A stretch of DNA of 64,000 nucleotides, from contig JAVIAB010000025.1 of assembly GCA_032433765.1 (NCBI GenBank), positions 37,861,756 to 37,925,755 on the forward strand, given 5' to 3'. Within the stretch, counting starts at the first letter, position 1. Each line of letters opens with the position of its first letter. Both the position numbers and the translations under genes were made by a program. Positions 2,850 through 43,935 of this stretch are shown here, in pieces. The notes beneath the pieces are model-generated. The model ran no database searches. It was not told the origin of the DNA and worked only from the letters and a program-made list of their open reading frames with translations. The stretch comes from Megaustenia siamemsis. Its lineage: Eukaryota > Mollusca > Gastropoda > Stylommatophora > Ariophantidae.

Positions 2850-3255
2850 ATGTTGTTTTACTGAACAGCTTCTCTCGTGGCTGAATCTGCCAATATTTAA
2901 TAGACAGATCCGTTCAGAGAATCAACAAGATGTATTTGTGGTGCCTGGCCTCATCTCCTTTCTCCTGTGCCTTTTGTCTTCTGAATTTGATATCAGCGCT
3001 GCCTCGAAAGTTGATGTGCCATTTTTCTTTTTTGTTCTCCATGTGCTACGATCTGCAGTCAGATTTTCCCAGTTTCTTTCACTGATAGAGAATTCCCTCA
3101 AGGAAGCCCTGCAAACATCCTTATATCGCAGAACTAGTCTGCCCTTTGGTCTCTTTCCATCCTTAAGTTCACCAAACAATATTTGTTTGGGAATACGATT
3201 ATTTGCCATTCTTCTTACATGACCCAGCCACCTTAGTCTACGACTCCTAAGTGTT
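2850..3255 (-). pseudogene. Non-LTR retrotransposon 3' end, family K (CR1-like C-terminus)
   Basis: Reverse-strand translation gives the familiar post-RT tail of animal non-LTR elements: LRSRRLRWLGHVRRM, then IPKQILFGELKDGKRPKG, a YKD motif and a RNWENLTADRSTWR segment, ending near 2930. The RT palm is absent, so this is a truncated or internally rearranged remnant. Its 3' side (gttcagtaaaacaacatcca on the reverse strand) runs straight into the 32-bp array. Its upstream coding side runs into a 58-bp array. The CR1-like label is by motif style only. Confidence 0.85.
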
Positions 3256-3780
3256 GCCATGATGGATGGGAGTTTGGCTCGTTGTAAGACATTAGAGTTG
3301 GTTACTTTGTCCTGCCATGATGGATGGGAGTTTGGCTCGTTGTAAGACATTAGAGTTAGTTACTTTGTCCTGCCATGATGGATGGGAGTTTGGCTCGTTG
3401 TAAGACATTAGAGTTAGTTACTTTGTCCTGCCATGATGGATGGGAGTTTGGCTCGTTGTAAGACGTTAGAGTTAGTTACTTTGTCCTGTCATGATGGATG
3501 GGAGTTTGGCTCGTTGTAAGACGTTAGAGTTAATTACTTTGTCCTGCCATGATGGATGGGAGTTTGGCTCGTTGTAAGACGTTAGAGTTAATTACTTTGT
3601 CCTGCCATGATGGATGGGAGTTTGGCTCGTTGTAAGACATTAGAGTTAGTTACTTTGTCCTGCCATGATGGATGGGAGTTTGGCTCGTTGTAAGACATTA
3701 GAGTTAGTTACTTTGTCCTGCCATGATGGATGGGAGTTTGGCTCGTTGTAAGACATTAGAGTTAGTTACTTTGTCCTGCC
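3256..3780 (-). repeat. 58-bp minisatellite derived from retrotransposon coding sequence
   Basis: Nine full copies at 58-bp spacing (unit starts 3256, 3314, 3372, 3430, 3488, 3546, 3604, 3662, 3720), then a partial one. On the reverse strand the unit reads KVTNSNVLQRAKLPSIMA, the segment that normally precedes the RRLRWLGHV block found immediately downstream in the family-K remnant. The period is not a multiple of three, so amplification destroyed the frame. Confidence 0.92.
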
Positions 3781-3815
3781 ATTTGATGTTCATAATCTTT
3801 CGAAGGCAACGTAAT

Positions 3816-4097
3816 GTTACAAAAACAAATATAATAACAATTATGAAAACAATAATGTTACAATAACAAATATAATAACAATTATGAAAACAATAATGTT
3901 ACAATAACAAATATAATAACAATTATGAAAACAATAATGTTACAATAACAAATATAATAACAATTATGAAAACAATGATGTTACAATAACAAATATAATA
4001 ACAATTATGAAAACAATAATGTTACAATAACAAATATAATAACAATTATGAAAACAATAATGTTACAATAACACATATAATAACAATAATATAACAA
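3816..4097. repeat. 41-bp AT-rich array
   Basis: Six to seven copies of an A/T-rich unit containing aatataataacaattatg, with gttacaataac motifs 41 bp apart (3857, 3898, 3939, 3980). Origin not recognised. It continues after the SINE insertion as degenerate ATAACAA repeats to about 4490. Confidence 0.88.
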
Positions 4098-4393
4098 TAC
4101 CAATTATAATATAGGGAGCCACGATAGCTCAGTGGTTAGTGAGCTGGACTACAAAGGACAAAATGTAGGGCTCGATCCCAACCGACGACCTACTGGTTCA
4201 CCCAGCTTTTAATGGGTACCGGGTTTTTTTTCTGGAAAAGTACAGCGACACGGGCGTAATACCGACCACATTACCCCAACAATCATGTGCCGAAGGTCTG
4301 TAAAATTTATGGTCACTAACACCATATTCCCTATACGCCACTTGGCGTGACGGGGGTACTTTACCTTATTTTTTACTTACTACCAATTATAAT
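4098..4393 (+). mobile_element. tRNA-derived SINE, family A, with 13-bp TSD
   Basis: The element occupies 4111-4380, flanked by perfect direct repeats taccaattataat (4098-4110 and 4381-4393), which proves insertion into the AT-rich array. A pol III A-box-like motif tagctcagtgg lies at 4125-4135 and a B-box-like ggctcgatccc at 4169-4179. A body of about 190 bp follows, and the 3' end is T-rich (tactttaccttatttttt) rather than poly(A). A second copy in the opposite orientation is at 20028-20279. Confidence 0.92.
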
Positions 4394-4484
4394 AACAAAT
4401 ATAATAACAATAATATAACAATAACAAACATAATAGTAATAACAACAATAACTAACATAATAATAAGAGAAAGACCAATAATGA
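4394..4484. repeat. Residual ATAACAA repeats
   Basis: Degenerate continuation of the AT-rich array that the family-A SINE interrupted. Confidence 0.6.
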
Positions 4485-4645
4485 TGATAATAACTTCAGG
4501 TTTCATTTCTGCCTGACTGCTGGTAAACCTCTGGCACTCCCAACAGACCGGCAACAAATCTGGCAGGAAAATAGAAACTAGAATGGACGCAAATTTAGCT
4601 TCTCATGGAACAGTCGCTGACAACGACACGGTAGACGTAAGATAT
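4485..4645 (-). mobile_element. 3' terminal segment of a non-LTR element beyond the 61-bp array
   Basis: This sequence lies on the 3' side of the 61-bp array in element orientation. On the reverse strand it ends in an ATT/ATC-rich tail (ttattatcatcattattgg), as expected for a non-LTR 3' terminus. It is interpreted as the distal end of the element whose coding remnant is at 6255-6600. Modest confidence because no second copy is present here. Confidence 0.5.
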
Positions 4646-6254
4646 CTGTCTCTAGTCAGATCTCCCACAGAACGTTACATTCACCACAGCCCATCTGAAA
4701 GAATCTCTGTCTCTAGCCAGATCCCCCACAGAACGATACATTCACCACAGCTCATCTGAAAGAATCTCTGTCTCTAGCCAGAACTCCCACAGAACATTGC
4801 ATTCACCACAGCCTGTCTGAAAGAATCTCTGTCTCTAGTCAGATCTCCCACAGAACGTTACATTCACCACTGCTCATCTGAAAGAATCTTTGTCACTAGT
4901 CAGATCTCTCACAGAACGTTGCATAAACAAAACCCATCTGAAAGAATCTATGTCTCTAATCAGATCTCCCACAGAACGTTGCATTCACCACAACCCGTCT
5001 GAAAGAATCTCTGTCTCTAACCAGATCTCCCACAGAACGTTGCATTCACCACTGCTCCTCTGAAAGAATCTCTGTCTCTAGCCAGATCTCCCACAGAACG
5101 TTACATTCACCACAGCTCATCTGAAAGAATCTCTGTCTCTAGTCAGATTTCTCACAGAACGTTACATTCACCACAGCCAATCTGAAAGAATCTCTGTCTC
5201 TAGTCAGATCTCCCACAGAACGTTACATTCACCACAGCCCGTCTGAAAGAATCTCTGTCTCTAGCCAGATCTCCCACAGAACGTTACATTCACCACAGCT
5301 CATCTGAAAGAATCTCTGTCTCTAGTCAGATCTCCCACAGAACGGAACGTTGCATTCACCACAACCCGTCTGAAAGAATCTCTGTCTCTAGCCAGATCTC
5401 CCACAGAACGTTACATTCACCACAGCTCATCTGAAAGAATCTCTGTCTCTAGCCAGATCTCCCACAGAACGTTACATTCACCACAGCTCATCTGAAAGAA
5501 TCTCTGTCTCTAGCCACATCTCCCACAGAACGTTACATTCACCACAGCCAATCTGAAAGAATCTCTGTCTCTAGCCAGATCTCCCACAGAACGTTGCATT
5601 CACCACAGCTCATCTGAAAGAATCTCTGTCTCTAGCCACATCTCCCACAGAACGTTACATTCACCACAGCTCATCTGAAAGAATCTCTGTCTCTAGCCAG
5701 ATCTCCCACAGAACGTTACATTCACCACAGCTCATCTGAAAGAATCTCTGTCTCTAGCCAGATCTCCCACAGAACGTTACATTCACCACAGCTCATCTGA
5801 AAGAATCTCTGTCTCTAGCCACATCTCCCACAGAACGTTACATTCACCACAGCTCATCTGAAAGAATCTCTGTCTCTAGCCAGATCTCCCACAGAACGTT
5901 ACATTCACCACAGCTCATCTGAAAGAATCTCTGTCTCTAGCCACATCTCCCACAGAACGTTACATTCACCACAGCTCATCTGAAAGAATCTCTGTCTCTA
6001 GCCAGATCTCCCACAGAACGTTACATTCACCACAGCTCATCTGAAAGAATCTCTGTCTCTAGCCACATCTCCCACAGAACGTTACATTCACCACAGCTCA
6101 TCTGAAAGAATCTCTGTCTCTAGTCAGATCTCCCACAGAACGTTACATTCACCACAGCTCATCTGAAAGAATCTCTGTCTCTAGCCACATCTCCCAGAGA
6201 ACGTTACATTCACCACAGCTCATCTGAAAGAATCTCTGTCTCTAGCCACATCTC
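4646..6254 (-). repeat. 61-bp minisatellite derived from a retrotransposon C-terminus
   Basis: About 26 copies at 61-bp spacing (tcatctgaaag at 5671 and 5732). On the reverse strand each unit reads LARDRDSFR-stop-AVVNVT, the common LA(R/Q)DRDxWR block near the C-terminus of non-LTR proteins. The neighbouring remnant at 6255 runs in frame into the first unit. From about 5820 to 6190 units with cagatct and cacatct alternate, giving a 122-bp dimer pattern. Confidence 0.9.
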
Positions 6255-6600
6255 CAACTACTTCGATTGTCACATTCAATGTCTCATCGATGCTTTGAAA
6301 CCACCTTCTTAGTCTGTCCAAAATGCATCGCCCAGGAACCATACCTTCCATTATTGATCTTTCCAGCCGGCTGTTTCTTTTAACGTAGGCATAGTATTTT
6401 ATTGTCTTCTGTAGAATGGTGTTTATAAACCAGTTCTTTTAAATATTTAAATCCTTTAATATGTCTTTATTGCTCATTTTCATTATGAAAGGTATGTTAA
6501 GGATTTTTATGTAGCATTTTATTGCGAATTGATCCATTTTCTTCCTTGGTATTTGCGAGATTATACATGATTCACAACCATATGTTGATACTGGGATGAT
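6255..6600 (-). pseudogene. Degenerate non-LTR C-terminal region
   Basis: Reverse-strand translation contains STYGCESCIISQ, IKCYIKILNIPFIMKMSNKD, a short YAYVKRNSRLERSIMEG block and GRCILDRLRRWFQSIDETL, matching in order the YGxESW, MWxxRRMLRIxW, GHVxR and GRGRRR blocks of non-LTR elements. It carries an in-frame stop. The reading continues into the 61-bp array as DVARDRDSFR. Family not assigned. Confidence 0.75.
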
Positions 6601-7119
6601 GCGTGGGATATATTTTTCATGAACATGAGATTTTCTCCAAGTTGATTTCTATATTAAAAATAAAATGTTTCCCAATAAATATTGGATTAGCTTTTAAGAG
6701 GAGTTTTGTATAAATATTGGATTGGATTGAGAAATGAGCTTTCCCCATATACAATCGTTGCAGATTTACTTTAAGACATTTCGGATTAACCTCAACCAGA
6801 CAGATTTTCCGAGCTCGCTAGACATGATGAATCGGTTTGCGCGCATTTGAGATTACATTCAGAATCCGGGCTCCTAGAGAAAGGAATGTTTCAAAAGGAA
6901 GTTTCGGTTTGAGGTGAAAAAAAAATCTTTCTTTTACAGTGATATTACATTTCTTCTGCGCTTGAATACAGGAAGAGGTGAGAGGGAGCGGGAATGGGGT
7001 GGGGTGGGTGGGGGGTGGTTATTGAGTAGGTAGCACTCAAGGCCGCTGTTTAATGCAGTCACCACGTAGCGAACATGTCAGGGTTGTTTTAAATCATTAA
7101 AATAAACCAATGTGCAACA
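6601..7119. other. No recognisable feature
   Basis: Ordinary mixed sequence with a short G-rich patch near 7000. No gene, RNA or repeat family is recognised. Confidence 0.5.
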
Positions 7120-7120
7120 A

Positions 7121-7146
7121 TGACAGAGAGAAAGAGAGAGAGAGAG

Positions 7147-7184
<38 letters not shown>
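7121..7184. repeat. (GA)n microsatellite
   Basis: Almost pure GA dinucleotide tract with a few interruptions. Confidence 0.95.
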
Positions 7185-7188
<4 letters not shown>

Positions 7189-7206
7189 CTTTGATATTAA
7201 CAAATA

Positions 7207-8900: not shown

Positions 8901-8904
8901 TCAA

Positions 8905-13878: not shown

Positions 13879-14010
13879 GTTTTGATTCGTCTCTTATCTG
13901 ATCATGTGAAATGTATTATACTCACCAGATTATGTTTGAGATCCTACGTTGACATTTGTTTTCAAAGATATTTAATTTCCTATCTAAAGTCTGATTGGAT
14001 TTCCAACTTT
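13879..14010 (-). pseudogene. Non-LTR C-terminal remnant, upstream part
   Basis: Continuation of the remnant beyond the family-B SINE. Reading the reverse strand from about 14010 it encodes SWKSNQ-like residues and then KCQRRISNII, directly preceded in the adjacent array by PVLTYGCE. In family members this block is PVLTYGCESW followed by a QRR(I/L) segment, so the array starts exactly within the YGCES codons. Confidence 0.7.
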
Positions 14011-17000
14011 CACATCCATATGTTAGCACTGGTATCACATCCATATGTTAGTACTGGTATCACATCCATATGTTAGCACTGGTATCACATCCATATGTTA
14101 GCACTGGTATCACATCCATATGTTAGTACTGGTATCACATCCATATGTTAACACTGGTATCACATCCATATGTTAGCACTGGTATCACATCCATATGGTA
14201 GCACTGGTATCACATCCATATGTTAGCACTGGTATCACATCCATATGTTAGCACTGGTATCACATCCATATATTAGCACTGGTTTCACATCCATATGTTA
14301 GCACTGGTATAAAATCCATATGTTAGCACTGGTATCACATCCATATGTTAGCACTGGTTTCACATCCATATGTTAGCACTGGTATAAAATCCATATGTTT
14401 GCACTGGTATCACACCCATATGTTAGCACTAGTATCATATCCTTATGTTAGCACTGGTATCACACCCATATGTTAGCACTGGTACCACACCCATATGTTA
14501 GCACTGGTACCACACCCATATGTTAGCATTGGTATCACATCCATATGTTAGCACTGGTATCACATCTATATGTTAGCACTGGTATCACATCCATATGTTA
14601 GCACTGATATCACATCCATATGTTAGCACTGGTATCACATCCATATGTTAGCACAGGTATCACATCCATATGTTAGCACTGGTATCACATTCATATGTTA
14701 GCACTGGTATCACATCTATATGTTAGCACTGGTATCACATCCATATGTTAGCACTGGTATCCCATTCATATGTTAGCACTGGTATCACATCCATATGTTA
14801 GCACTGGTATCACATCTATATGTTAGCACTGGTATCATATCCACATGTTAGCACTGGTATCACATCCATTTGTTAGCACTGGTATCATATCCATATGTTA
14901 GCACTGGTACCACACCCATATGTTAGCACTGGTATCATATCCTTATGTTAGCACTGGTACCACACCCATATGTTAGCACTGGTATCATATCCACATTTTA
15001 GCACTGGTATCACATCCATATGTTAGCACTGGTATCATATCCACATGTTAGCTCTGGCATCACACCCATATGTTAGCACTGGTATCATATCCTTATGTTA
15101 GCACTGGTATCATATCCTTATGTTAGCACTGGTATCACATTCATATGTTATCACTAGTATCACACCCATATGTTAGCACTGGTATCACATCCATATGTTA
15201 GCACTGGTATCACATCCATATATTAGCACTGGTTTCACATCCATATGTTAGCACTGGTATAAAATCCATATGTTAGCACTGGCATCACATCCATATGTTA
15301 GCACTGGTTTCACATCCATATGTTAGCACTGGTATCACATCCATATGTTAGCACTGGTATCACATCCATATGTTAGTACTGGTATCACATCCATATGTTA
15401 GCACTGGTATCACATCCATATGTTAGCACTGGTATCACATCCATATGGTAGCACTGGTATCACATCCATATGTTAGCACTGGTATCACATCCATATGTTA
15501 GCACTGGTATCACATCCATATATTAGCACTGGTTTCACATCCATATGTTAGCACTGGTATCACATCCATATATTAGCACTGGTTTCACATCCATATGTTA
15601 GCACTGGTATAAAATCCATATGTTAGCACTGGTATCACATCCATATGTTAGCACTAGTTTCACATCCATATGTTAGCACTGGTATAAAATCCATATGTTT
15701 GCACTGGTATCACACCCATATGTTAGCACTAGTATCATATCCTTATGTTAGCACTGGTATCATATCCTTATGTTAGCATTGGTATCACATCCATATGTTA
15801 GCACTGGTATCACATCTATATGTTAGCACTGGTATCACATCCATATGTTAGCACTGGTATCACATCCATATGTTAGCACTGGAATCACATCCATATGTTA
15901 GCACTGGTATCACATCCATATGTTAGTACTGGTATCACATTCATATGTTAGCACTGGTATCACATCTATATGTAAGCACTGGTATCACATCCATATGTTA
16001 GCACTGGTATCCCATTCATATGTTAGCACTGGTATCACATCCATATGTTAGCACTGGTATCACATCTATATGTTAGCACTGGTATCATATCCACATGTTA
16101 GCACTGGTATCACATCCATTTGTTAGCACTGGTATCATATCCATATGTTAGCACTGGTACCACACCCATATGTTAGCACTGGTATCATATCCTTATGTTA
16201 GCACTGGTACCACACCCATATGTTAGCACTGGTATCATATCCACATGTTAGCACTGGTATCACATCCATATGTTAGCACTGGTATCATATCCACATGTTA
16301 ACACTGGCATCACATCCATATGTTAGCACTGGTATCACATCCATATGGTAGCACTGGTATCACATCCATATGTTAGCACTGGTATCACATCCATATGTTA
16401 GCACTGGTATCACATCCATATATTAGCACTGGTTTCACATCCATATGTTAGCACTGGTATAAAATCCATATGTTAGCACTGGTATCACATCCATATGTTA
16501 GCACTGGTTTCACATCCATATGTTAGCACTGGTATAAAATCCATATGTTTGCACTGGTATCACACCCATATGTTAGCACTAGTATCATATCCTTATGTTA
16601 GCACTGGTTTCACACCCATATGTTAGCACTGGTACCACACCCATATGTTAGCACTGGTACCACACCCATATGTTAGCACTGGTATCATATCCATATGTTA
16701 GCACTGGTACCACACCCATATGTTAGCACTGGTATCATATCCTTATGTTAGCACTGGTACCACACCCATATGTTAGCACTGGTATCATATCCACATGTTA
16801 GCACTGGTATCACATCCATATGTTAGCACTGGTATCATATCCACATGTTAGCACTGGCATCACACCCATATGTTAGCACTGGTATCATATCCTTATGTTA
16901 GCACTGGTATCATATCCTTATGTTAGCACTGGTATCACATTCATATGTTATCACTAGTATCACACCCATATGTTAGCACTGGTATCACATCCATATGTTA

Positions 17001-19173
17001 GCACTGGTATCATATCCATATGTTAGCACTGGTATCACATCCATATGTTAGCACTGGTATCACATCCATATGTTAGCACTGGTATCACATCCATATGTTA
17101 GCACTGGTATCACATCCATATGTTAGCACTGGTATCACATCCATATGTTAGTACTGGTATCACATCCATATGTTAGCACTGGTATCACATCCATATGTTA
17201 GCACGGTATCACATCCATATGGTAGCACTGGTATCACATCCATATGTTAGCACTGGTATCACATCCATATGTTAGCACTGGTATCACATCCATATATTAG
17301 CACTGGTTTCACATCCATATGTTAGCACTGGTATCACATCCATATATTAGCACTGGTTTCACATCCATATGTTAGCACTGGTATAAAATCCATATGTTAG
17401 CACTGGTATCACATCCATATGTTAGCACTAGTTTCACATCCATATGTTAGCACTGGTATAAAATCCATATGTTTGCACTGGTATCACACCCATATGTTAG
17501 CACTAGTATCATATCCTTATGTTAGCACTGGTATCATATCCTTATGTTAGCATTGGTATCACATCCATATGTTAGCACTGGTATCACATCTATATGTTAG
17601 CACTGGTATCACATCCATATGTTAGCACTGGTATCACATCCATATGTTAGCACTGGTATCACATCCATATGTTAGCACTGGTATCACATCCATATGTTAG
17701 CACTGGTATCACATTCATATGTTAGCACTGGTATCACATCTATATGTTAGCACTGGTATCACATCCATATGTTAGCACTGGTATCCCATTCATATGTTAG
17801 CACTGGTATCACATCCATATGTTAGCACTGGTATCACATCTATATGTTAGCACTGGTATCATATCCACATGTTAGCACTGGTATCACATCCATTTGTTAG
17901 CACTGGTATCATATCCATATGTTAGCACTGGTACCACACCCATATGTTAGCACTGGTATCATATCCTTATGTTAGCACTGGTACCACACCCATATGTTAG
18001 CACTGGTATCATATCCACATGTTAGCACTGGTATCACATCCATATGTTAGCACTGGTATCATATCCACATGTTAGCACTGGCATCACACCCATATGTTAG
18101 CACTGGTATCATATCCTTATGTTAGCACTGGTATCATATCCTTATGTTAGCACTGGTATCACATTCATATGTTATCACTAGTATCACACCCATATGTTAG
18201 CACTGGTATCACATCCATATGTTAGCACTGGTATCATATCCATATGTTAGCACTGGTATCACATCCATATGTTAGCACTGGTATCACATCCATATGTTAG
18301 CACTGGTATCACATCCATATGTTAGCACTGGTATCACATCCATATGTTAGCACTGGTACCACACGCATATGTTAGCACTGGTACCACACCCATATGGTAG
18401 CACTGGTATCATGTCCACATGTTAGCACTGGTATCACATCCATATGTTAGCACTGGTATCATATCCACATGTTAGCACTGGTATCACGTCCATTTGTTAG
18501 CACTGGTATCATATCCATATGTTAGCACTGGTACCACACCCATATGTTAGCACTGGTATCATATCCTTATGTTAGCACTGGTACCACACCCATATGTTAG
18601 CACTGGTATCATATCCACATGTTAGCACTGGTATCACATCCATATGTTAGCACTGGTATCATATCCACATGTTAGCACTGGCATCACACCCATATGTTAG
18701 CACTGGTATCATATCCTTATGTTAGCACTGGTATCATATCCTTATGTTAGCACTGGTATCACATTCATATGTTATCACTAGTATCACACCCATATGTTAG
18801 CACTGGTATCACATCCATATGTTAGCACTGGTATCATATCCATATGTTAGCACTGGTATCACATCCATATGTTAGCACTGGTATCACATCCATATGTTAG
18901 CACTGGTATCACATCCATATGTTAGCACTGGTATCACATCCATATGTTAGCACTGGTACCACACGCATATGTTAGCACTGGTACCACACCCATATGGTAG
19001 CACTGGTATCATATCCTTATTTTAGCACTGGTATCACATTCATATGTTATCACTGGTATCACACCCATATGTTAGCACTGGTATCACATCCATATGTTAG
19101 CACTGGTATCATGTCCACATGTTAGCACTGGTATCACATCCATATGTTAGCACTGGTATCACACCCATATGTT
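14011..19173 (-). repeat. 25-bp minisatellite, ~206 copies, from a retrotransposon YGCES block
   Basis: A 5.2-kb array of a 25-bp unit containing catccatatgttagcactgg. On the reverse strand one unit reads PVLTYGCE, continuous with the non-LTR remnant at 13879-14010. Nested higher-order repeats are marked by rare variants: cccattcata at 14761, 16011 and 17785 (spacings 1250 and 1774), and accacacgcatatg near 18358 and 18958 (spacing 600). A single-base deletion (gcacggtatc near 17204) shifts the unit phase. Confidence 0.93.
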
Positions 19174-19179
19174 AACATA

Positions 19180-20531: not shown

Positions 20532-20872
20532 GATCAGGACTCAATCAGAGTAGGATTCCAGACTCTCACATGAAGTCAGCTGTCAGGTTAAGTGTGTTGA
20601 TCGCCCCCCCCCCACACACAGACAGAACATCACAATTAGAGTCTGCCAGATCCACTCTGATTGAACACCCGTTAAAACGTTGCACTGTGTTCTGCGCCAG
20701 TGGCCCAGCACATCCGATTTCAGCCAGCATTTTATTCAGGTTTGCATTCCTTAGCCTTTGGTTGTCCCCAATCTTCCTGCAAGGCAGCAGATGATCTTTT
20801 CTGTAGGGGGATTCTGCCCTTAGATGGTCGGCCCTCCCAGGTTTACGAGCACCATCTGCCCGAGTCACTAGA

Positions 20873-22533
20873 GGTGACTAGCACAGACATGCACACACAA
20901 AGATATGAGATGTAACTAACACAGACATACACACACAAAGATATGAGAGGTGACTAACACAGACATACACACACAAAGATATGAGATGTGACTAACACAG
21001 ACATGCACACACAAAGATATGAGATGTGACTAACACAGACATAACACACAAAGATATGAGATGTGACTAACACAGACATACACACACAAATATATGAGAG
21101 GTGACTAACACAGACATACACACACAAAGATATGAGAGGTGACTAACACAGACATGCACACACAAAGATATGAGATGTGACTAACACAGACATACACACA
21201 CAAAGATATGAGTTGTGACTAACACAGACATGCACACACAAAGATATGAGAGGTGACTAACACAGACATGCACACACAAAGATATGAGAGGTGACTAACA
21301 CAGACATACACACACAAAGATATGAGAGGTGACTAACACAGACATGCACACACAAAGATATGAGATGTGACTAACACAGACATGCACACACAAAGATATG
21401 AGAGGTGACTAACACAGACATGCACACACAAAGATATGAGAGGTGACTAACACAGACATACACACACAAAGATATGAGATGTGACTAACACAGACATGCA
21501 CACACAAAGATATGAGATGTGACTAACACAGACATACACACACAAAGATATGAGATGTGACTAACACAGACATACACACACAAAGATATGAGTTGTGACT
21601 AACACAGACATGCACACACAAAGATATGAGAGGTGACTAACACAGACATACACACACAAAGATATGAGAGGTGACTAACACAGACATGCACACACAAAGA
21701 TATGAGAGGTGACTAACACAGACATGCACACACAAAGATATGAGATGTGACTAACACAGACATACACACACAAAGATATGAGAGGTGACTAACACAGACA
21801 TGCACACACAAAGATATGAGAGGTGACTAACACAGACATACACACACAAAGATATGAGTTGTGACTAACACAGACATGCACACACAAAGATATGAGAGGT
21901 GACTAACACAGACATACACACACAAAGATATGAGATGTGACTAACACAGACATGCACACACAAAGATATGAGAGGTGACTAACACAGACATGCACACACA
22001 AAGATATGAGATGTGACTAACACAGACATACACACACAAAGATATGAGAGGTGACTAACACAGACATGCACACACAAAGATATGAGATGTGACTAACACA
22101 GACATACACACACAAAGATATGAGTTGTGACTAACACAGACATGCACACACAAAGATATGAGAGGTGACTAACACAGACATGCACACACAAAGATATGAG
22201 ATGTGACTAACACAGACATACACACACAAAGATATGAGAGGTGACTAACACAGACATGCACACACAAAGATATGAGAGGTGACTAACACAGACATACACA
22301 CACAAAGATATGAGAGGTGACTAACACAGACATGCACACACAAAGATATGAGAGGTGACTAACACAGACATGCACACACAAAGATATGAGAGGTGACTAA
22401 CACAGACATACACACACAAAGATATGAGAGGTGACTAACACAGACATACACACACAAAGATATGAGAGGTGACTAACACAGACATGCACACACAAAGATA
22501 TGAGAGGTGACTAACACAGACATACACACACAA
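20873..22533 (+). repeat. 38-bp minisatellite of element X, copy 1
   Basis: About 44 copies of a unit with gtgactaacacagacatgca then cacacaaagatatgag. Variable sites are limited (atgc/atac, gagag/gagat/gagtt). The array forms the right end of element X. The second X copy carries only about 11 units, mostly with atgt, so the number of units differs between copies. Confidence 0.95.
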
Positions 22534-22538
22534 ATAAT

Positions 22539-25085: not shown

Positions 25086-25640
25086 TTGCAGCGTCTTTAG
25101 AAATGTTATTTTGTTCTTTCCTTTCTCCGTGTATTCACCTTTTCTATGAACCTGTCTGCTTCTTGTTTGAGTTGGAGCTTTAGAGTGTGTCTCCAAAAAT
25201 TGCGGTCTGTAGCTATGTCTTCCCAGGCTGCAGGGTTTATGTTCAGAGTCTTCACGTTTACACACGTCTACAAATCAAAGTTTTGGGCGTCCACTAGTTC
25301 TTTTGCCATCTGCCAATTGTCCATAAAGTATATCTGTTGGTATGCGGCCATCTTCCACACGGTGTACGTGGCCAGGCCAGCGTAACCTACGTTGTTTGAG
25401 CAGCGTGTAGATGTTCGGGAGACCTGTGGTAGTGAGGACCTCAACGTTTGTCACACTGTCCCTCCAGATGATAGCAAGAATACGGCGCTGGCATCGCATT
25501 TGTAACACATTTAGCCTTCTCTCTTGCTTTTCATGCATTGTCCATGATTCACAGCTATACAAAATGTATTAATGATTCAGGCGTTGTAAACTACAGTCTT
25601 TGTTTTAGTTGTCTGCTGTTTTATAAAACCCGCATAGAGA
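25086..25640 (-). pseudogene. Non-LTR family K C-terminal remnant
   Basis: Reverse strand encodes SCESWTMHEKQERRLNVLQM, RCQRRILAIIWRDSVTNVEV, LLKQRRLRWPGHVHRVEDGR and ILYGQLADGKRTSGRPKL, then a second frame with EHKPCSLGRHSYRPQFLETH. The order is typical of CR1-like C-termini, with a frameshift near 25270. Upstream (25566-25640) it is more degraded, with stops. The matching upstream block is in the 54/63-bp array that follows. Confidence 0.85.
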
Positions 25641-25950
25641 GGATGGCGAAGGTGGTAGCAACTTTACCAATACGAGTGCCACTTATCAGGAGACTAGGGG
25701 TAGCTGTGGTAGCAACTTTACCAATACGAGTGTCACTTATCATGAGACTAGGGGTAGCTGTGGTAGCAACTTTACCAAAACGAGTGTCACTTATCATGAG
25801 ACTAGGGGTAGCTGTGGCGAAGGTGATAGCAACTTTACCAATACGAGTGTCACTTATCAGGAGACTAGGGGTAGCTGTGGCGAAGGTAGTAGCAACTTTA
25901 CCAATACGAGTGTCACTTATCACGAGACTAGGGGTAGCTGAACTCAACTG
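25641..25950 (-). repeat. 54/63-bp array derived from the RIGKVATT block
   Basis: Five copies. On the reverse strand each unit reads SLLISDTRIGKVATT; two units carry an extra 9 bp (63 bp). DxxIGKAATT(M/F)AxL is the block that precedes YGSESWT in this family, and it lies at the correct position upstream of SCESWTM in the adjacent remnant. The open frames on both strands (forward 25538-25951, reverse 25621-25947) result from the period being a multiple of three. Confidence 0.88.
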
Positions 25951-28744: not shown

Positions 28745-28975
28745 GAGTGGGGGGAATTGTATGAGTGGCCTTGGCTACATGTAAGACAGGAAAGTCCCCG
28801 GTTCGAGTCCCGACTCAGACTGTGCGAACTTTTCCCTCAAATCCAGGCTTTGTCTGGTGGTTTTGTCCTCCCATGGTCTCTGGCTAGTCAGATCCGATAC
28901 CTAGCCCTTTCGGATAATGCTGAAAACATTCCCGTGTTCGCTCTGCGCACTTTAAAGAAACATTTTGAGAGTTCA

Positions 28976-29021: not shown

Positions 29022-29760
29022 GATCAAGACTCAATCAGAGCAGGATTCCAGACTCCCACATGAAGTCAGCTGTCCGGTTAAGTGTGTTGATCGCCCCCAC
29101 AGACAGAACATCACAATTGGAGTCTGCCAGATCCACTCTGATTGAACACCCGTTAAGACGATGCACTGTGTTCTGCGCCAGTGGCCCAGTGCATCCGATT
29201 TCAGCCGTCCTTTTATTCAGGTTTACATTCCTTAGCCTTTGATTGTCCCCAATCTTCCTGCAAGGCAGCAGATTGTCTTTTCTGTAGGGGGATTCTGTCC
29301 TTAGATGGTCGGCCCTCCCAGGTTTACGAGCACCGTCTGCCCGAGTCACTAGAGGTGACTAACACAGACATGTACACACAAAGATATGAGATGTGACTAA
29401 CACAGACATGTACACACAAAGATATGAGAGGTGACTAACACAGACATGTACACACAAAGATATGAGATGTGACTAACACAGACATGTACACACAAAGATA
29501 TGAAATGTGACTAACACAGACATGTACACACAAAGATATGAGAGGTGACTAACACAGACATGTACACACAAAGATATGAGATGTGACTAACACAGACATG
29601 CACACACAAAGATATGAGATGTGACTAACACAGACATGTACACACAAAGATATGAGAGGTGACTAACACAGACATGCACACACAAAGATATGAGATGTGA
29701 CTAACACAGACATGTACACACAAAGATATGAGATGTGAATAACACAGACATGCACACAGC
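28979..29760 (+). mobile_element. Repeat element X, copy 2
   Basis: The same three parts as copy 1: (TC)n 28979-29018, a body at 29019-29350 closely similar to 20530-20872, then about 11 units of the 38-bp minisatellite that degenerate to about 29815. It lacks the ccccccccacacaca stretch of copy 1 and has other small indels. Left flank is a family-D SINE and right flank a fragment of family-1 non-LTR. Confidence 0.78.
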
Positions 29761-29819
29761 GATACGAGACATGACTAACACCTACACACATCAAGATATC
29801 TGACACATGACTAACATAG

Positions 29820-31739: not shown

Positions 31740-32595
31740 TCCTCTTCTACCTTTCAACTCCCTGTGGAGCATAGGTCTTCAACAAACACTTTCAGTTTTC
31801 TGTGGAGCATAGGTCTTCAACAAACACTTTCAACTCCATGTGGAGCATAGGTCTTGAACAAACATTTTCAGCTCCCTGTGGAGCATAGGTCTTCAACAAA
31901 CACTTTCAACTCCATGTGGAGCATAGGTCTTCAACAAACATTTTCAGCTCCCTGTGGAGCATAGGTCTTCAACAAACACTTTCAACTCCATGTGGAGCAT
32001 AGGTCTTCAACAAACACTTTCAACTCCATGTGGAGCATAGGTCTTCAACAAACATTTTCAGCTCTCTGTGGAGCATAGGTTTTCAGCAAACACTTTCAGC
32101 TCCCTGTGGAGCATAGGTCTTCAACAAACATTTTCAGCTCCCTGTGGAGCTTAGGCCTTCAACAAACATTTTCAGCTCCCTGTGGAGCATAGGTTTTCAG
32201 CAAACACTTTCAGCTCCCTGTGGAGCATAGGTTTTCAGCAAACACTTTCAGCTCCCTGTGGAGCATAGGTTTTCAGCAAACACTTTCAGCTCCCTGTGGA
32301 GCATAGGTCTTCAACAAACACTTTCAACTCCATGTGGAGCATAGGTCTTCAACAAACATTTTCAGCTCTCTGTGGAGCATAGGTTTTCAGCAAACACTTT
32401 CAGCTCCCTGTGGAGCATAGGTCTTCAACAAACATTTTCAGCTCCCTGTGGAGCTTAGGCCTTCAACAAACATTTTCAGCTCCCTGTGGAGCATAGGTTT
32501 TCAACAAACACTTTCAGCTCCCTGTGGAGCATAGGTTTTCAACAAACACTTTCAGCTCCCTGTGGAGCATAGGTCTTCAACAAACGCTTTCCAAG
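31740..32595 (-). repeat. 38-bp minisatellite from a retrotransposon stop-codon region
   Basis: About 22 copies of a unit with cataggtcttcaacaaacac and tttcagctccctgtggag. On the reverse strand it reads VFVEDLCSTGS-stop, identical to the last codons of the unexpanded family-C non-LTR copy at 38172-38763. The reversed tail (cctcttctacc) lies at the left edge and the upstream coding part at 32596-32855, so the array sits inside one element copy. Confidence 0.93.
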
Positions 32596-34907: not shown

Positions 34908-35270
34908 TTGGGGGAGAGATGGCCGGGTGGTTCAGAGATAAGGCATCGGCCTCAGAAGATGAAGAAAATAGGTTCGAATCCCAACACAGTCGATTGTCCA
35001 CTTCCAATCCGTGGCTTCCTAGTGGCTTTACCTTCCCCTGGTCTCTGGCTAGTGAGATCCGATACCTAGCCCTCTCGGATAGCGACGAAAAAGCTGGAGG
35101 CCCCGTGTGCACTTTGCACACGTTAAAGAACCATCAGAAACTTAAAGTTGAAAAAGTAGGCCGAAATGGCCGCTGCCCGGGGAAAAGTTGTTAATTAAGC
35201 AAACCTGCCCATACTGAAGACGGATGTGCCGGTCCGAAAGGCACAGTTATCGCAATCTTGCTGTTAACAA
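34908..35270 (+). mobile_element. tRNA-derived SINE, family D, copy D1
   Basis: A-box-like tggccgggtggttcag from 34920 and a canonical B-box ggttcgaatcc at 34971-34981. The core contains ctctggctagtgagatccga and tacctagccctctcggata, then cacacgttaaagaacc, and the distal part gaagacggatgtgccggtcc. Best preserved D copy; TSD not resolved. Confidence 0.88.
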
Positions 35271-35402: not shown

Positions 35403-35690
35403 GCTGACTAGTCCAGTGGTACGGCGCCGGCCTCTCTTCAGGATGGACCCGGGTTTAAAGCTCACCACAAAATGTGTTGAGTTTTCAAAAATATACAAAT
35501 AAATTAATCCGTGGTTTCTCTATGACGTTACCCTACCCCCTGATCTCTTGGGTCGTGAGATCCGATGCCTAGCCCTCTCGGATAACGGCAATAAATAAAC
35601 AGGACGTCTCGTGTGCACTCTCGCACGTTAAAGTACCATCGACAGTTAAAATTTAAAAAAAAAAGTAGTCCACAAATATGGTCGATTCTG
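35403..35690 (+). mobile_element. tRNA-derived SINE, family D, copy D3
   Basis: A-box-like tagtccagtggtacggc from 35409 and a degenerate B-box gggtttaaagctc at 35451-35463. Shares gtgagatccgatgcctagcc, ctctcggataacgg and gcacgttaaagtaccat with D1. Its tRNA-like head differs from D1, so different heads carry the same core. Ends near a G-run at 35699-35711. Confidence 0.8.
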
Positions 35691-38161: not shown

Positions 38162-38773
38162 AACTTTGTGCGCAGAATAAAAAGATGGAAATGGCAGGAC
38201 AAAATCACTAACATAGAATTATGGAAATGTACCAGTCAAAATGAATGAGGTGCGCGTGGCCGTGCGGCTAAAACCACTGTTCCGCTGGTTGAAAAGCCGA
38301 TGTACGGTGTTCGAAGCCCGCGGTAGACAGAAAGGATTTTTTCTATCGGGGGTGAAATAAAAATCCTGAGTCTCACAAGTCGTGGCGACTGCTTGACCAA
38401 GCGGCCTTTATCCCTCTGGTTCTATCGTTGCCCCCCGTCATACATCAGCAATGGTACTATGTGACGTAAAGATAACCAGTCAAATACAAGTGGACAAAGA
38501 GATACAGCGAAGACGATGGCGCTGGATAGGACACACACTGCGGAAGCGATCTGAGAGTATTACACAACAGGCCCTTTTTTGGAATCATCAGGGGAAAAAG
38601 ACAAAGAACACCAAGGAATTCTTGGAGAAGACAGATAGAAGCAGAGATGAAGATGAAGGGGAAGACATAACGATCATAAAAGAATGGCAAGAAACAGAAC
38701 GGTCTTGGAAAGTGTTTGTTGAAGACCTATGCTCCACAGGGAGCTGAAAGGTAGAAGAAGAAGACTTTGTGCG
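38162..38773 (+). mobile_element. 5'-truncated non-LTR family C insertion with TSD actttgtgcg
   Basis: Direct repeats actttgtgcg at 38162-38171 and 38764-38773 bracket the insertion. It encodes KWQDKITNIELWKC, then (after SINE F) VDKEIQRRRWRWIGHTLRKR, ITQQALFWNHQGKK and ERSWKVFVEDLCSTGS plus a stop at about 38746, followed by a gtagaagaagaag tail. It keeps only the C-terminal ~115 codons, with no RT domain. The single-copy VFVEDLCSTGS end is the unexpanded counterpart of the 38-bp array at 31740. Confidence 0.92.
38231..38484 (+). mobile_element. tRNA-derived SINE, family F, nested in non-LTR family C
   Basis: Inserted at accagtcaaa (38231-38240 and 38475-38484), splitting the CTSQ-IQVDKE codons of the host element. 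The tRNA-like head is gcgcgtggccgtgcggctaa, with B-box-like ggtgttcgaagccc at 38306-38319. Only one copy is seen in the window. Confidence 0.85.
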
Positions 38774-39273: not shown

Positions 39274-39535
39274 AGGAGGACGGGATGGTCTCGAGGCAAG
39301 ACGCCGGTCTCGAGACAGAAAGGTTGTGAGTTCAAATCCAGGCTGCACCAGTCGGGATTTATATTTGTGATTTCTCTCTGTGGCAACCACCCCTGGTCTC
39401 AGCAGCGAGGCCCGGCTTGAAATGTCAATTACTCATTGACGGAAAAAAAAATATGGGTATCTCTGAAAACGGAGTTTTCTGCCTGTGCGGTGAGGGACCC
39501 TTATGACACGGGCTGCCATGAAAAAAAATACTAAT
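39274..39535 (+). mobile_element. tRNA-derived SINE, family E, copy 2
   Basis: A-box-like tggtctcgaggcaagac from 39286 and B-box-like ggttgtgagttcaaatcc at 39322-39339. The body includes gtggcaaccacccctggtct and gtgagggacccttatgacac. Ends in an A-rich tail. Counterpart of 22790-23075. Confidence 0.85.
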
Positions 39536-39739
39536 TAAAAAAAAAGCTATAACAGATAACAACGAAGATGTTGCAAAAATACTAAACAAAGAAAAAACTT
39601 TTCGGACATAAAAGTCTTCTGCAGGTACGAAAGCAAAGTAAACAGAAAATAAATCTTTAAAAAGAAAAATAAATCTGAAATAGCAGCAAGAGACACTGTG
39701 TAGGGCAACACATAATGACATGAAAATATATACTTCTAA

Positions 39740-39930
39740 TACTTGATGACATATTTGTTGTGATGGAAAGTCAAAATAAAGGTCTAAGTCTCAACAGTAA
39801 AAATAAAGAATTCTTGATTGTAAAATAGAAAAAGGTCATCTCTCAAATGAACAACTAAAGTAAATGGACAATATTGAAACATGTCAATGTAGTTAAATAT
39901 CTGGGAACGATGTTAGCTTCAAATGGTAGA
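39740..39930 (+). pseudogene. Non-LTR family 1 remnant, part upstream of the 41-bp array
   Basis: Forward strand encodes MESQNKGLSLNSKNKEFLIV (the region after the RT YADD box) and then VVKYLGTMLASNGRCTTVV, matching the FKYLGSxxxSDGRCTxEIR block of non-LTR RTs. It runs directly into the array and resumes after it at 42916. Confidence 0.8.
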
Positions 39931-42915
39931 TGTACAACAGTGGTGAGGTGTAGCATAGTTCTGATGGTAGATGTACCTCAGAGGTGAGGTGTAGAATAGT
40001 TCAGGTGGTAGATGTACAACAGAGGTGAGGTGTAGAATAGTTCAGTTGGTAGATGTACAACAGAGTTGAGGTGTAGAATAGTTCAGTTGGTAGATGTACA
40101 ACAGAGTTGAGGTGTAGAATAGTTCAGATGGTAGATGTACAGCAGAGGTGAGGTGTAGAATAGTTCAGATGGTAGATGTACAACAGAGGTGAGATGTAGA
40201 ATAGTTCTGATGGTAGATGTACATCAGAGGTGAGGTGTAGAATAGTTCAGATGGTAGATGTACAACAGTGGTGAGGTGTAGAATAGTTCAGATGGTAGAT
40301 GTACAACAGAGGTGAGATGTAGAATAGTTCAGATGGTAGATGTACAACAGAGGTGAGATGTAGAATAGTTCAGATGGTAGATGTACAACAGAGGTGAGAT
40401 GTAGAATAGTTCTGATGGTAGATGTACAACAGAGTTGAGGTGTAGAATAGTTCAGGTGGTAGATGTACAACAGAGGTGAGGTGTAGAATAGTTCAGGTGG
40501 TAGATGTACCTCAGAGGTGAGGTGTAGAATAGTTCAGGTGGTAGATGTACAACAGTGGTGAGGTGTAGAATAGTTCTGATGGTAGATGTACCTCAGAGGT
40601 GAGATGTAGAATAGTTCAGATGGTAGATGTACAACAGTGGTGAGGTGTAGAATAGTTCTGATGGTAGATGTACAACAGAGGTGAGATGTAGAATAGTTCA
40701 GATGGTAGATGTACAACAGTGGTGAGGTGTAGAATAGTTCAGGTGGTAGATGTACAACAGAGGTGAGATGTAGAATAGTTCAGATGGTAGATGTACAACA
40801 GAGGTGAGATGTAGAATAGTTCAGATGGTAGATGTACAACAGAGGTGAGATGTAGAATAGTTCTGATGGTAGATGTACAACAGAGTTGAGGTGTAGAATA
40901 GTTCAGGTGGTAGATGTACAACAGAGGTGAGGTGTAGAATAGTTCAGGTGGTAGATGTACAACAGTGGTGAGGTGTAGAATAGTTCTGATGGTAGATGTA
41001 CCTCAGAGGTGAGGTGTAGAATAGTTCAGGTGGTAGATGTACAACAGTGGTGAGGTGTAGAATAGTTCAGATGGTAGATGTACAACAGAGGTGAGATGTA
41101 GAATAGTTCTGATGGTAGATGTACAACAGAGTTGAGGTGTAGAATAGTTCAGGTGGTAGATGTACAACAGAGGTGAGGTGTAGAATAGTTCAGGTGGTAG
41201 ATGTACCTCAGAGGTGAGGTGTAGAATAGTTCAGGTGGTAGATGTACAACAGTGGTGAGGTGTAGAATAGTTCTGATGGTAGATGTACCTCAGAGGTGAG
41301 ATGTAGAATAGTTCAGATGGTAGATGTACAACAGTGGTGAGGTGTAGAATAGTTCAGATGGTAGATGTACAACAGAGGTGAGATGTAGAATAGTTCAGAT
41401 GGTAGATGTACAACAGTGGTGAGGTGTAGAATAGTTCAGGTGGTAGATGTACAACAGAGGTGAGATGTATAATAGTTCAGATGGTAGATGTACAACAGAG
41501 GTGAGATGTAGAATAGTTCAGATGGTAGATGTACAACAGAGGTGAGATGTAGAATAGTTCTGATGGTAGATGTACAACAGAGTTGAGGTGTAGAATAGTT
41601 CAGGTGGTAGATGTACAACAGAGGTGAGGTGTAGAATAGTTCAGGTGGTAGATGTACAACAGTGGTGAGGTGTTGAATAGTTCAGGTGGTAGATGTACAA
41701 CAGTGGTGAGGTGTAGAATAGTTCTGATGGTAGATGTACCTCAGAGGTGAGGTGTAGAATAGTTCAGGTGGTAGATGTACAACAGAGGTGAGGTGTAGAA
41801 TAGTTCAGGTGGTAGATGTACAACAGTGGTGAGGTGTAGAATAGTTCAGATGGTAGATGTACAGCAGAGGTGAGGTGTAGAATAGTTCAGATGGTAGATG
41901 TACAACAGAGGTGAGATGTAGAATAGTTCAGATGGTAGATGTACAACGGAGGAGAGGTGTAGAATAGTTCAGACGGTAGATGTACAACAGAGGTGAGGTG
42001 TAGAATAGTTCAGACGGTAGATGTACAACAGAGGTGAGGTGTAGAATAGTTCAGACGGTAGATGTACAACAGAGGTGAGGTGTAGAATAGTTCAGACGGT
42101 AGATGTACAACAGAGGTGAGGTGTAGAATAGTTCAGATGGTAGATGTACAACAGAGGTGAGGTGTAGAATAGTTCAGATGGTAGATGTACAACAGAGGTG
42201 AGATGTAGAATAGTTCAGATGGTAGATGTACAACAGAGGTGAGATGTAGAATAGTTCAGATGGTAGATGTACAACAGAGGTGAGATGTAGAATAGTTCAG
42301 ATGGTAGATGTACAACAGTGGTGAGATTTATAATAGTTCTGATGGTAGATGTACAACAGAGGTGAGATGTAGAATAGTTCTGATGGTAGATGTACAACAG
42401 AGGTGAGATGTAGAATAGTTCAGATGGTAGATGTACAACAGAGGTGAGATGTAGAATAGTTCAGATGGTAGATGTACAACAGAGGTGAGATGTAGAATAG
42501 TTCAGATGGTAGATGTACAACAGAGGTGAGATGTAGAATAGTTCTGATGGTAGATGTACAACAGAGGTGAGATGCAGAATAGTTCTGATGGTAGATGTAC
42601 AACAGAGGTGAGATGTAGAATAGTTCTGATGGTAGATGTACAACAGAGGTGAGATGTAGAATAGTTCTGATGGTAGATGTACAACAGAGGTGAGATGTAG
42701 AATAGTTCAGACGGTAGATGTACAACAGTGGTGAGATGTAGAATAGTTCTGATGGTAGATGTACAACAGAGGTGAGATGTAGAATAGTTCTGATGGTAGA
42801 TGTACAACAGAGGTGAGATGTAGAATAGTTCAGACGGTAGATGTACAACAGTGGTGAGATGTAGAATAGTTCTGATGGTAGATGTACAACAGAGGTGAGG
42901 TGTAGAATAGTTCAG
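39931..42915 (+). repeat. 41-bp minisatellite from the DGRCTTEVRCR codons, ~72 copies
   Basis: A 3-kb array of a unit with gatggtagatgtacaacaga and ggtgaggtgtagaatagttc. One unit reads DGRCTTEVRCRIVQ, continuous with family-1 coding sequence on both sides. The period is not a multiple of three, so the frame is lost after one unit. Higher-order duplications are visible as identical reverse frames starting 40288, 40739 and 41436 (spacings 451 = 11 units and 697 = 17 units). An unexpanded copy of the same codons is at 43355-43400. Confidence 0.95.
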
Positions 42916-43185
42916 GAAATGCCAAAATGTATTTCATGTACTCAAATCTTCATCAAAGGCGAAAGAAACATTGTTGTTCATGGTTATGTAGAGCCAGTCT
43001 TCGACTGTAGATGTGAATCATGGACAACAAGGCAACAGACAAGAAAATCGTCGGTGGTCGTTCTGGATGCATGGATTACATACAAAGATTCAAATTTATA
43101 TTCAATATCTGTCAGATCTTTGAATCAAAAGATATCAAAGAGAGCTTCATGGGGGACTGTGGAATCCTTGTATTTCTTAGTTGAT
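42916..43185 (+). pseudogene. Non-LTR family 1 remnant, part downstream of the 41-bp array
   Basis: Forward frame continues EMPKCISCTQIFIKGERN, then VEPVFDCRCESWTTRQQTRK (the YGCESWT block), and degrades after about 43080. Confidence 0.75.
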
Positions 43186-43304
43186 TAACGCTACGGGATT
43201 AGATGAGGAGGTTATCTGAGCCCCTGTAGACTTGTTGTAGGATGTCGATAATCCGTTGACTAAACTAAATTAAACGATCAAATGTTAAGAATACAAGACA
43301 AGTG

Positions 43305-43935
43305 GAACAATATTAAAACAGGAAAGTGTATTTAAATATTTGGGAAGAATGTTACCTTCAGATGGAAGATGTACAAAAGAGGTGAGATGCAGAATGGCTC
43401 AGGCAAAAGCAGATTTTAAAAAATGAGGAAGATACTATGTAATCCATTTTTGACAATAGAAACAAGAAAAAGAGTTCTTAAATGATATGTAGAGCCAGTC
43501 TTAACATATTGATGTGAATTATGGACATTAGGACAACAGACAAGAAAATCACTGGAGTCTGTAGAAATGTGGTTTTACAGAAGAATGTTGAGAATACCAT
43601 GGACAGCTAAGAAGAGTAATGAAAACGTTCTGAAAGAGGCCAAAACAAAAATAGAGCTAATTTCCAATATTAGGAAGAAACAATCATCATTTTTTGGCCA
43701 TGTAATGAGAAGAGAACAACTGGAATATATTGTGACAACTGGGGAAATTGAGGGATGAAGAGATAGAGGGAACCAAAGAGAAAAGATACCAGGCAGATTA
43801 AGAGAATGGCTTGGCAGAAGGTCAACAACAGAAATGATGAATAACTGTCGAGATCGAAAGTTGTAGAGAGACATGATCACCTACACCAGCAGGCATGTCA
43901 CTTGATGATGATGATGATGATAATAATAATAATGA
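43305..43935 (+). pseudogene. Non-LTR family 1, longest 3' end copy, unexpanded
   Basis: Blocks in order: KYLGRMLPSDGRCTKEVRCR near 43335, a CELWTL-like block near 43515, MWFYRRMLRIPWTAKKSNEN at 43567, SSFFGHVMRREQLEYIVTTG, and DMITYTSRHVT plus a stop before a (GAT)n tail from about 43903. Several stops (43753, 43865 region) and frameshifts. Serves as reference for the swollen copies. Confidence 0.9.

What the first reader, a model, noticed from the sequence alone, without database searches (positions are those of the whole stretch)
2850..43935. Minisatellites repeatedly born inside non-LTR retrotransposon C-terminal codons
Six arrays with unrelated periods (58, 61, 25, 54/63, 38, 41 bp) translate to different conserved blocks of non-LTR proteins (LQRAKLPSI, LARDRDSFR, PVLTYGCE, SDTRIGKVATT, FVEDLCSTGS-stop, DGRCTTEVRCR). 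Each is joined to the matching flanking codons. This points to a general process in which decaying retrotransposon 3' ends seed tandem arrays, rather than chance adjacency. Together with the 32-bp arrays they account for roughly 14 kb of the window.
Basis: partly seen in the sequence, partly recalled or inferred. Interest (0 to 1): 0.9.

Follow-up and report, generated by a model that had tools for sequence, protein, structure and literature searches.

The report
Minisatellites grown from retrotransposon pieces

Summary
All six arrays are tandem amplifications of 25-63 bp pieces of non-LTR retrotransposon copies; so are the two 32-bp arrays, which come from the 3' UTR of the 58-bp array's family. 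Unexpanded relatives were found for all of them. For the three arrays with element sequence on both sides, the period equals the spacing of a 5-6 bp direct repeat in unexpanded copies (ATGGCA/58, CTCAG/41, GAAAG/38), and the leftover array length is 6, 5 and 5 bases: the signature of slippage or unequal exchange at short direct repeats.

Birth is recurrent. The 58-bp array is in 21 of 40 scored family copies, which do not form one clade (AU p=0.004), and five different tandem duplications occur near that element's 3' end among the same 40.

The general claim fails in the sample available. Minisatellites fill about a quarter of five random 10-kb stretches. Outside the window 1 of 86 array units matches these elements, against 4.6-7.4% of random non-array pieces. 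Arrays are seeded in retrotransposons because the genome is full of them; a few families carry hot spots. TE-derived minisatellites with flanking direct repeats are known from human Alu. A new member of a known kind, with an unusually clean recurrent example.

The parts
459..2849 (-). 32-bp array (74.6 units) from the 3' UTR of the F58 non-LTR family, abutting that element's copy
   Evidence: unit CATGATTGCTTGCTACCAACTGTCTGTCAAGA is the element's 3' UTR segment, present once in most of the 40 copies read
2850..3254 (-). decayed F58 element: C-terminal codons (TLRSRRLRWLGHVRRM...) and start of 3' UTR
   Evidence: 7480 first-look candidates, 40 scored; 44% identical to the F63 tail over 72 residues
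3255..3782 (-). 58-bp array (9.1 units), codons DKVTNSNVLQRAKLPSIMA
   Evidence: 21 of 40 copies carry it; single copies have ATGGCA 58 bp apart; length mod period = 6
3783..3811 (-). upstream element codons (LRCLRKIMNIKWQ) on the other side of the 58-bp array; the element copy ends here (5' truncation)
4645..6255 (-). 61-bp array (26 units), codons RDRDSFR and following 3' end of the F61 family
   Evidence: 26 of 40 scored copies show two or more units; L010 has one
6256..6618 (-). decayed F61 element upstream of the array
   Evidence: related to the F41 tail (34% over 91 residues, E=9e-17)
13915..14009 (-). element codons ESWKSNQTLDRKLNIFENKCQRR joined to the 25-bp array on one side
14010..19174 (-). 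25-bp array (206.6 units), motif PVLTYGCE, from the F41 family or a close relative
25182..25651 (-). decayed F63 element downstream of the 63/54-bp array
   Evidence: RVT_1 upstream in copies L090, L091
25652..25940 (-). 63/54-bp array (about 5 units), codons SDTRIGKVATT
   Evidence: the only one of 40 scored copies with a second unit match
31751..32591 (-). 38-bp array (22 units), FVEDLCSTGS-stop at the very 3' end of the F38 family
   Evidence: further arrays at the same site in L004 and L097
32592..32852 (-). decayed F38 element upstream of the array
38475..38769 (+). unexpanded F38 copy in the window: one unit, then GGTAGAAGAAGAAG element end
39918..42915 (+). 41-bp array (73 units), codons DGRCTTEVRCR, element codons on both sides
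   Evidence: length mod period = 5
43290..43902 (+). unexpanded F41 copy in the window (unit at 43357-43402)
61231..61479 (+). second F58 element copy, 3' end
61524..62155 (+). second 32-bp array (20 units) downstream of that F58 3' end

Best explanation
These arrays are 25-63 bp pieces of decayed non-LTR retrotransposon copies that were amplified in tandem, likely started inside individual copies by slippage or unequal exchange between short direct repeats lying one unit apart. The unexpanded copies show the starting state. In the F58, F41 and F38 families a 5-6 bp word occurs twice, exactly one period apart; one misalignment between the two words would duplicate the segment, and further misalignment of the duplicate would grow it to tens of units (both steps inferred, not observed). 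Where the word pair is built into a family, the same array can appear again and again in different copies (F58: 21 of 40 scored). Elsewhere in the element, tandem duplications have joints with 0-4 bp of homology and are private to one copy. Retrotransposon tails are frequent hosts because the genome is full of them, not because they are shown to be special.
For: Unexpanded paralogs: F38 29 of 30 loci without the array; F58 19 of 40; F63 39 of 40 without a second unit match (7 read as sequence); F41 none of 40 scored with a second unit match (8 copies read); F61 L010. Direct repeats at unit spacing in unexpanded copies: F41 CTCAG in 8 of 8 (the window's own copy has TTCAG/CTCAG); F38 GAAAG in 18 of 27 loci matched by the pattern; F58 ATGGCA in the consensus of the single copies, exact on both sides in 10 of 19 by my reading. 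Array length mod period is 6, 5 and 5 for 58, 41 and 38, the lengths of those words. Chance of 5 bp or more at a random joint in these sequences: 0.0087. Recurrence: five different tandem duplications among 40 F58 copies near the 3' end (L037 32 bp, L042 34 bp, L049 32 bp with another joint, L070 42 bp, L040 117 bp); F38 arrays at three places (window, L004, L097). One origin for the F58 array is rejected (AU p=0.0039); label changes 12 against 13.5 when shuffled.
Against: Three of the six named arrays (61, 25, 63) have element on one side only, so their joints cannot be read. The 3' UTR duplications show only about 0-4 bp of homology, so direct repeats are not needed everywhere; over the 17 arrays the leftover lengths show no common pattern. 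The F58 tree is star-like (4 of 37 inner branches starred) and holds one array-only group of nine (support 86/77), so some arrays may have been inherited by retrotransposition. F58 array units are slightly closer to the family consensus than single units are (3.9% v 5.6%, p=0.06), and L055's inner units lack two variants of its own clade; plain local birth does not predict either. GAAAG is common in F38, yet only 1 of 30 loci has the array.
Confidence: 0.72

Rival explanations
1. The active F58 (and F61) elements themselves carry the array, and copies inherit it by retrotransposition with later changes in unit number, as in SVA elements of apes (recalled).
For: 21 of 40 F58 and 26 of 40 F61 scored copies have the repeat at the same place. 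One all-array group of nine in the tree. Units from different F58 arrays are as alike (0.97) as units within one (0.955-0.998), though one search took the best-scoring units first.
Against: AU test rejects array copies as one clade (p=0.0039); labels are not clustered (128 of 500 shuffles as low); single copies keep the ATGGCA pair; 58 is not a multiple of three, so the array breaks the reading frame; F61 arrays differ from each other (between-array identity 0.91).
Confidence: 0.25
2. General seeding by retrotransposon 3' ends: decaying 3' ends make arrays more often than other DNA.
For: Six of 26 window units hit the element DNA library against 76 of 1000 random pieces (p=0.014). More element-born arrays exist outside the window: L004, L097, a 51-bp array in RT tail codons in L080 (seen by eye) and a 78-bp array in RT core codons in L091.
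Against: Circular in the window. Outside it 0 of 17 and 1 of 69 units against 46 and 74 of 1000 pieces, and 0 of 17 and 1 of 69 against 72 and 90 of 1000 with a wider protein library (flanks p=0.024, arrays lower). In 29 F38 loci, 1 array in 8,749 bases of element against 31 in 87,000 bases of flank. The L091 array lies in the RT core, not the 3' end.
Confidence: 0.1
3. Reverse transcriptase stutters during target-primed reverse transcription at the word pair, so arrays arise at insertion.
For: Of 6 F58 copies with two or more units whose upstream side was read, 3 (L037, L039, L044) look 5'-truncated within about 45 bp of the array (by eye); array units look early-born.
Against: L041, L043 and L065 extend further upstream; the count is small.
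Confidence: 0.08
4. Chance adjacency: elements inserted into pre-existing arrays.
For: It does happen: L016, L021 and L034 have the same or a similar array on both sides of an element.
Against: In the eight window arrays the unit itself is element sequence, with unexpanded relatives elsewhere.
Confidence: 0.02

Closest known systems
TE-derived minisatellites of the human genome (Ahmed and Liang 2012, PMC3389668; abstract, sections 3.3 and 3.4 and passages read)
   Same: Tandem repeats whose unit is a piece of a TE, most of them thought to start at or after individual insertion; some flanked by 5-20 bp direct repeats; hot spots inside AluS and LTR12
   Different: There 300 of 7,276 are reported with flanking direct repeats and most of those unexplained have only two units; here long arrays from LINE coding tails, and one site expanded in about half the scored copies
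Minisatellite birth models: slipped-strand mispairing at non-contiguous repeats (Taylor and Breden 2000) and duplication between 5-10 bp direct repeats (Haber and Louis 1998), both as described in PMC3389668, originals not read
   Same: Period equals the spacing of a short direct repeat in the unexpanded sequence; residual length equals the word
   Different: Here many unexpanded and expanded copies of one site exist in one genome
Satellites from LINE sequence: HinfI from CR1 (3' UTR and part of ORF2, chicken), PROsat and Pvc 20 from L1 ORF2, cetacean satellite from the L1 3' end (PMC9659126, section 2.2 and table passages read)
   Same: LINE coding or 3' sequence turned into tandem arrays
   Different: Those are named satellite families; here short arrays at many separate loci
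TE-borne internal arrays (MITE and Helentron cases in PMC12628747, passages read; SVA VNTR, recalled)
   Same: Array inside an element; short direct repeats proposed as a cause of longer arrays
   Different: Array-bearing copies here do not form one lineage

Membership tests
TE-derived minisatellite | Unit homologous to a TE beyond chance | tested here: met
   6 of 26 window units hit the element DNA library, 0 of 1000 shuffled pieces; 3 of 26 pass with proteins
TE-derived minisatellite | Array lies inside a TE copy, with TE sequence continuing at the edge | tested here: met
   Both sides for 58, 41, 38; one side for 61, 25, 63
TE-derived minisatellite | Unexpanded paralogs of the same TE site | tested here: met
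Direct-repeat slippage (Haber-Louis / Taylor-Breden) | Direct repeat of about 5 bp or more at unit spacing in the unexpanded sequence | tested here: met
   58, 41 and 38; not met for the 3' UTR duplications (about 0-4 bp); not readable for 61, 25, 63
Direct-repeat slippage (Haber-Louis / Taylor-Breden) | Incomplete terminal unit of the length of the word | tested here: met
   Length mod period 6, 5, 5 for these three; no common pattern over the 17 arrays of that call
Element carrying an inherited array (SVA-like) | Array-bearing copies form a lineage | tested here: not met
   AU p=0.0039; 12 changes v 13.5 shuffled
Retrotransposon 3' ends as preferred seeds | Enrichment over random DNA of the same genome | tested here: not met
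   1 of 86 units outside the window v 4.6-7.4% of pieces and v 7.2-9.0%. Modest power
Non-LTR retrotransposon | Reverse transcriptase domain upstream of the tails | tested here: met
   RVT_1 in F63 copies L090, L091, F41 copies L098, L099, and upstream of F38 in L004; not in the L097 piece. F58 and F61 only through similarity to F63 and F41 tails. Clade not determined
Non-LTR retrotransposon | Target-site duplications and simple 3' tail | tested here: inconclusive
   F38: GAA-type tail; candidate flanking repeats of 11-20 bp in 11 of 29 loci, but element 5' ends were not located

The most novel reading that the evidence does not exclude
F58 is a retrotransposon family that plants the same primed minisatellite seed, two ATGGCA words 58 bp apart, at thousands of places, and about half of the planted seeds have independently grown into arrays: a natural replicate experiment on how often and how fast minisatellites are born.
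Probability: 0.4. Interest if true: 0.62.

Novelty: new member of a known kind. Interest (0 to 1): 0.42.

Why it matters
How a minisatellite starts is rarely visible, because the starting sequence is gone once it has expanded. Here many near-identical copies of one sequence, some expanded and some not, sit in one genome, so birth rate, need for homology and growth could be measured against matched controls. It also warns that testing array units against shuffled sequence overstates a link with transposons in a transposon-rich genome.

Tried and rejected
Pfam on the bare C-terminal tails: nothing at the cut-off; the reverse transcriptase had to be found upstream. Pfam on upstream pieces of two F61 loci: no reverse transcriptase. 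Protein search with the 41-bp flanks: no candidate. Plasmid search with a window ORF: no match. Idea that arrays start as long target-site duplications: candidate duplications in F38 loci are 11-20 bp, shorter than the units; L021's 184-bp identical flanks is a single case inside an array. Idea that F58 arrays are in older copies: flank divergence is equal (0.0705 v 0.0704). Genome-wide counts of the F58 array joint by pattern did not complete. The 25-bp family could not be searched. The species was not identified.

Full report
What was checked. The window is C25:37861756-37925755 of a 2.59-Gb genome in 155 contigs (organism not named). TRF gives 58 rows. With the two 32-bp arrays they total 14,455 bases. 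Arrays of period 20-100 cover 33,430 of 64,000 bases of the window.

What the arrays are. I name families after their arrays. F38: a DNA search with the unexpanded copy at 38.4-38.8 kb (6313 first-look candidates, 40 scored, 30 loci fetched) shows copies ending FVEDLCSTGS-stop and then GGTAGAAGAAG... In one search, 29 of 30 loci lack the array and L004 has another 38-bp array at the same place; a third turned up by chance in the flank of L097. F58: 7480 candidates, all 40 scored copies fetched. F61: 6733 candidates; 26 of 40 scored copies, the window's included, show a second unit match, and the seven others read as sequence have about three or more units. F63: 6246 candidates; only the window copy of 40 shows more than one unit match. 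F41: 5461 candidates, no second unit match in 40 scored (one of them the window's own unexpanded copy); the window's array copy is not among them. The rankings favour copies like the query; the F61 query held one unit and part of the next, and the F58 query one unit and 8 bases, so their array fractions may be too high. The 25-bp unit matches F41 further downstream. Reverse transcriptase (RVT_1) was found in F63 and F41 copies and upstream of an F38 copy. F58 and F61 were tied to these only by tail similarity: F58 to F63 (44% over 72 residues), F61 to F41 (34% over 91).

The 32-bp arrays. The 3' UTR of F58 ends ...TTATCATGATTGCTTGCTACCAACCGTCTGTCAAGACGCCAAAGGCCATA.... The window's 32-bp unit is this segment. 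L042 has a 34-bp unit, L049 a 32-bp unit with another joint, L070 a 42-bp dimer, and L040 a 117-bp dimer starting further upstream. So among 40 copies this end gave rise to at least five different tandem duplications. Such different joints cannot come from one inherited array.

How they start. For the three arrays with element on both sides the ancestral joint can be read. In F41 all 8 unexpanded copies examined have CTCAG twice, 41 bp apart; the window's own unexpanded copy has TTCAG and CTCAG. In F38, 18 of 27 loci matched by the pattern (L004 left out) have GAAAG exactly twice, 38 bp apart. In F58 the consensus of the single copies has ATGGCA twice, 58 bp apart, exact on both sides in 10 of 19 as I read. 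Array length mod period is 5, 5 and 6. A random joint in these sequences has 5 bp or more of homology with probability 0.0087. The 3' UTR duplications have about 0, 0, 1, 1 and 4 bp by my reading, so homology helps but is not required. Slippage or unequal exchange is inferred from these joints, not observed.

Recurrent or inherited. 21 of the 40 F58 copies carry the 58-bp joint (19 by score, plus L073 and L074 by eye). On a tree of the 404-bp tail the label needs 12 changes, 13.5 on average when shuffled (128 of 500 as low); holding the array copies together costs 56 log-likelihood units (AU p=0.0039). The tree is poorly resolved and holds one all-array group of nine, so part of the arrays may be inherited. 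Array copies and single copies have equal flank divergence. Array units are somewhat nearer the consensus than single units (3.9 v 5.6%, p=0.06), and in L055 the last unit carries clade variants that the inner units lack; I cannot explain either.

Is it general? Five random 10-kb stretches have 24% of their bases in arrays of period 20-100 (22% with the stricter count). In one search, 22 of 75 units matched non-array DNA, against 1-3 of 75 shuffled units. But random non-array pieces match even more often: window 11/26 v 279/600, random 3/17 v 266/600 (p=0.044, arrays lower), F38-locus flanks 6/32 v 371/600 (this last set contains F38 by selection). Against a DNA library of the five families' tails, window units score 6/26 v 76/1000 pieces, random stretches 0/17 v 46/1000, locus flanks 1/69 v 74/1000. 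The window excess is circular, since the library came from its arrays. A wider library of 35 element protein pieces gives 3/26 v 130/1000, 0/17 v 72/1000 and 1/69 v 90/1000 (p=0.024, arrays lower); its one outside hit is a 78-bp array in reverse-transcriptase core codons in the flank of L091. It missed a 51-bp array in L080 (21 units) that I read as tail codons (YLGSVVTNNGDCQEEITRRLA), so this test has misses. Element tails (with protein matches) make 20.6% of the window's non-array DNA and 12% of the random stretches' (4,326 of 36,199 bases), so several arrays in them are expected. In 29 F38 loci the element body holds 1 array in 8,749 bases, the flanks 31 in 87,000. The sample is small (86 arrays outside the window) and array units diverge after birth, which lowers their match rate.

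Known or new. A review of TE-derived repeats (PMC9659126, section 2.2 and passages) lists satellites from CR1 and L1 ORF2 and 3' ends and finds no conclusive evidence that particular TE parts are preferred. Ahmed and Liang (PMC3389668; abstract, sections 3.3 and 3.4, passages) count 7,276 human TE-derived tandem repeats (23% of minisatellites and satellites), 300 of them flanked by 5-20 bp direct repeats, with hot spots in AluS; they cite Jurka and Gentles for Alu minisatellites between direct repeats. PMC12628747 (passages) describes direct repeats proposed to lengthen arrays in MITEs. So the process is known. The five literature searches (listings seen, three papers opened) did not show a case where one LINE site expands in about half its copies, but that is no proof of absence.

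Noticed in passing
L032-L036 and window: About a quarter of five random 10-kb stretches, and half of the window, is minisatellite of period 20-100: an array-rich genome whose main source of arrays is not explained by the families studied here.
   Followed up: partly
window 20870-22534, 29351-29781; L024 2342-2705; L035 1872-2567; L036 481-1037: A different 38-bp array (TGACTAACACAGACATGCACACACAAAGATATGAGA) recurs at five places, the two in the window with the same left flank: a dispersed, probably element-borne array.
   Followed up: no
L021 1323-1506 and 2607-2790; L016; L034 4596-9696: Elements sitting inside arrays, the converse relation; in L021 the element is flanked by 184 identical bases.
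   Followed up: partly
L091 downstream flank (flank bases 206-613): A 78-bp array whose unit reads as reverse-transcriptase core codons (LDFADD), so element-born arrays are not confined to the C-terminus.
   Followed up: no
L080 2002-3083: A 51-bp in-frame array (21 units) reading TNNGDCQEEITRRLAVV in a locus that also carries the F61 array.
   Followed up: no
L055, F58 array: The last unit carries two clade variants (T18, G54) that the inner units lack, while all share a private base: possible conversion or chimerism between copies.
   Followed up: no
L039, L040, L044, L049, L052, L054: F58 array units (other than the last) only 0-1.7% from the family consensus although their flanks are 5-11% diverged.
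   Followed up: partly
L015 2539-3294, L029 7-1347; window 28877-28911, 35042-35076, 35544-35579: 31-bp arrays whose unit matches another dispersed sequence in the window, so arrays also arise in other repeats.
   Followed up: no
window 46316-47161: Fragment of another non-LTR element with a reverse transcriptase match (RVT_1).
   Followed up: no
window 50491-57329 and 57918-61228: A 39-bp array of about 176 units and a long TCA-rich complex array, neither matched to the element library.
   Followed up: no
L037, L039, L044: Three of six F58 copies with two or more units and a readable upstream side look 5'-truncated within about 45 bp of the array (by eye); too few to judge.
   Followed up: partly
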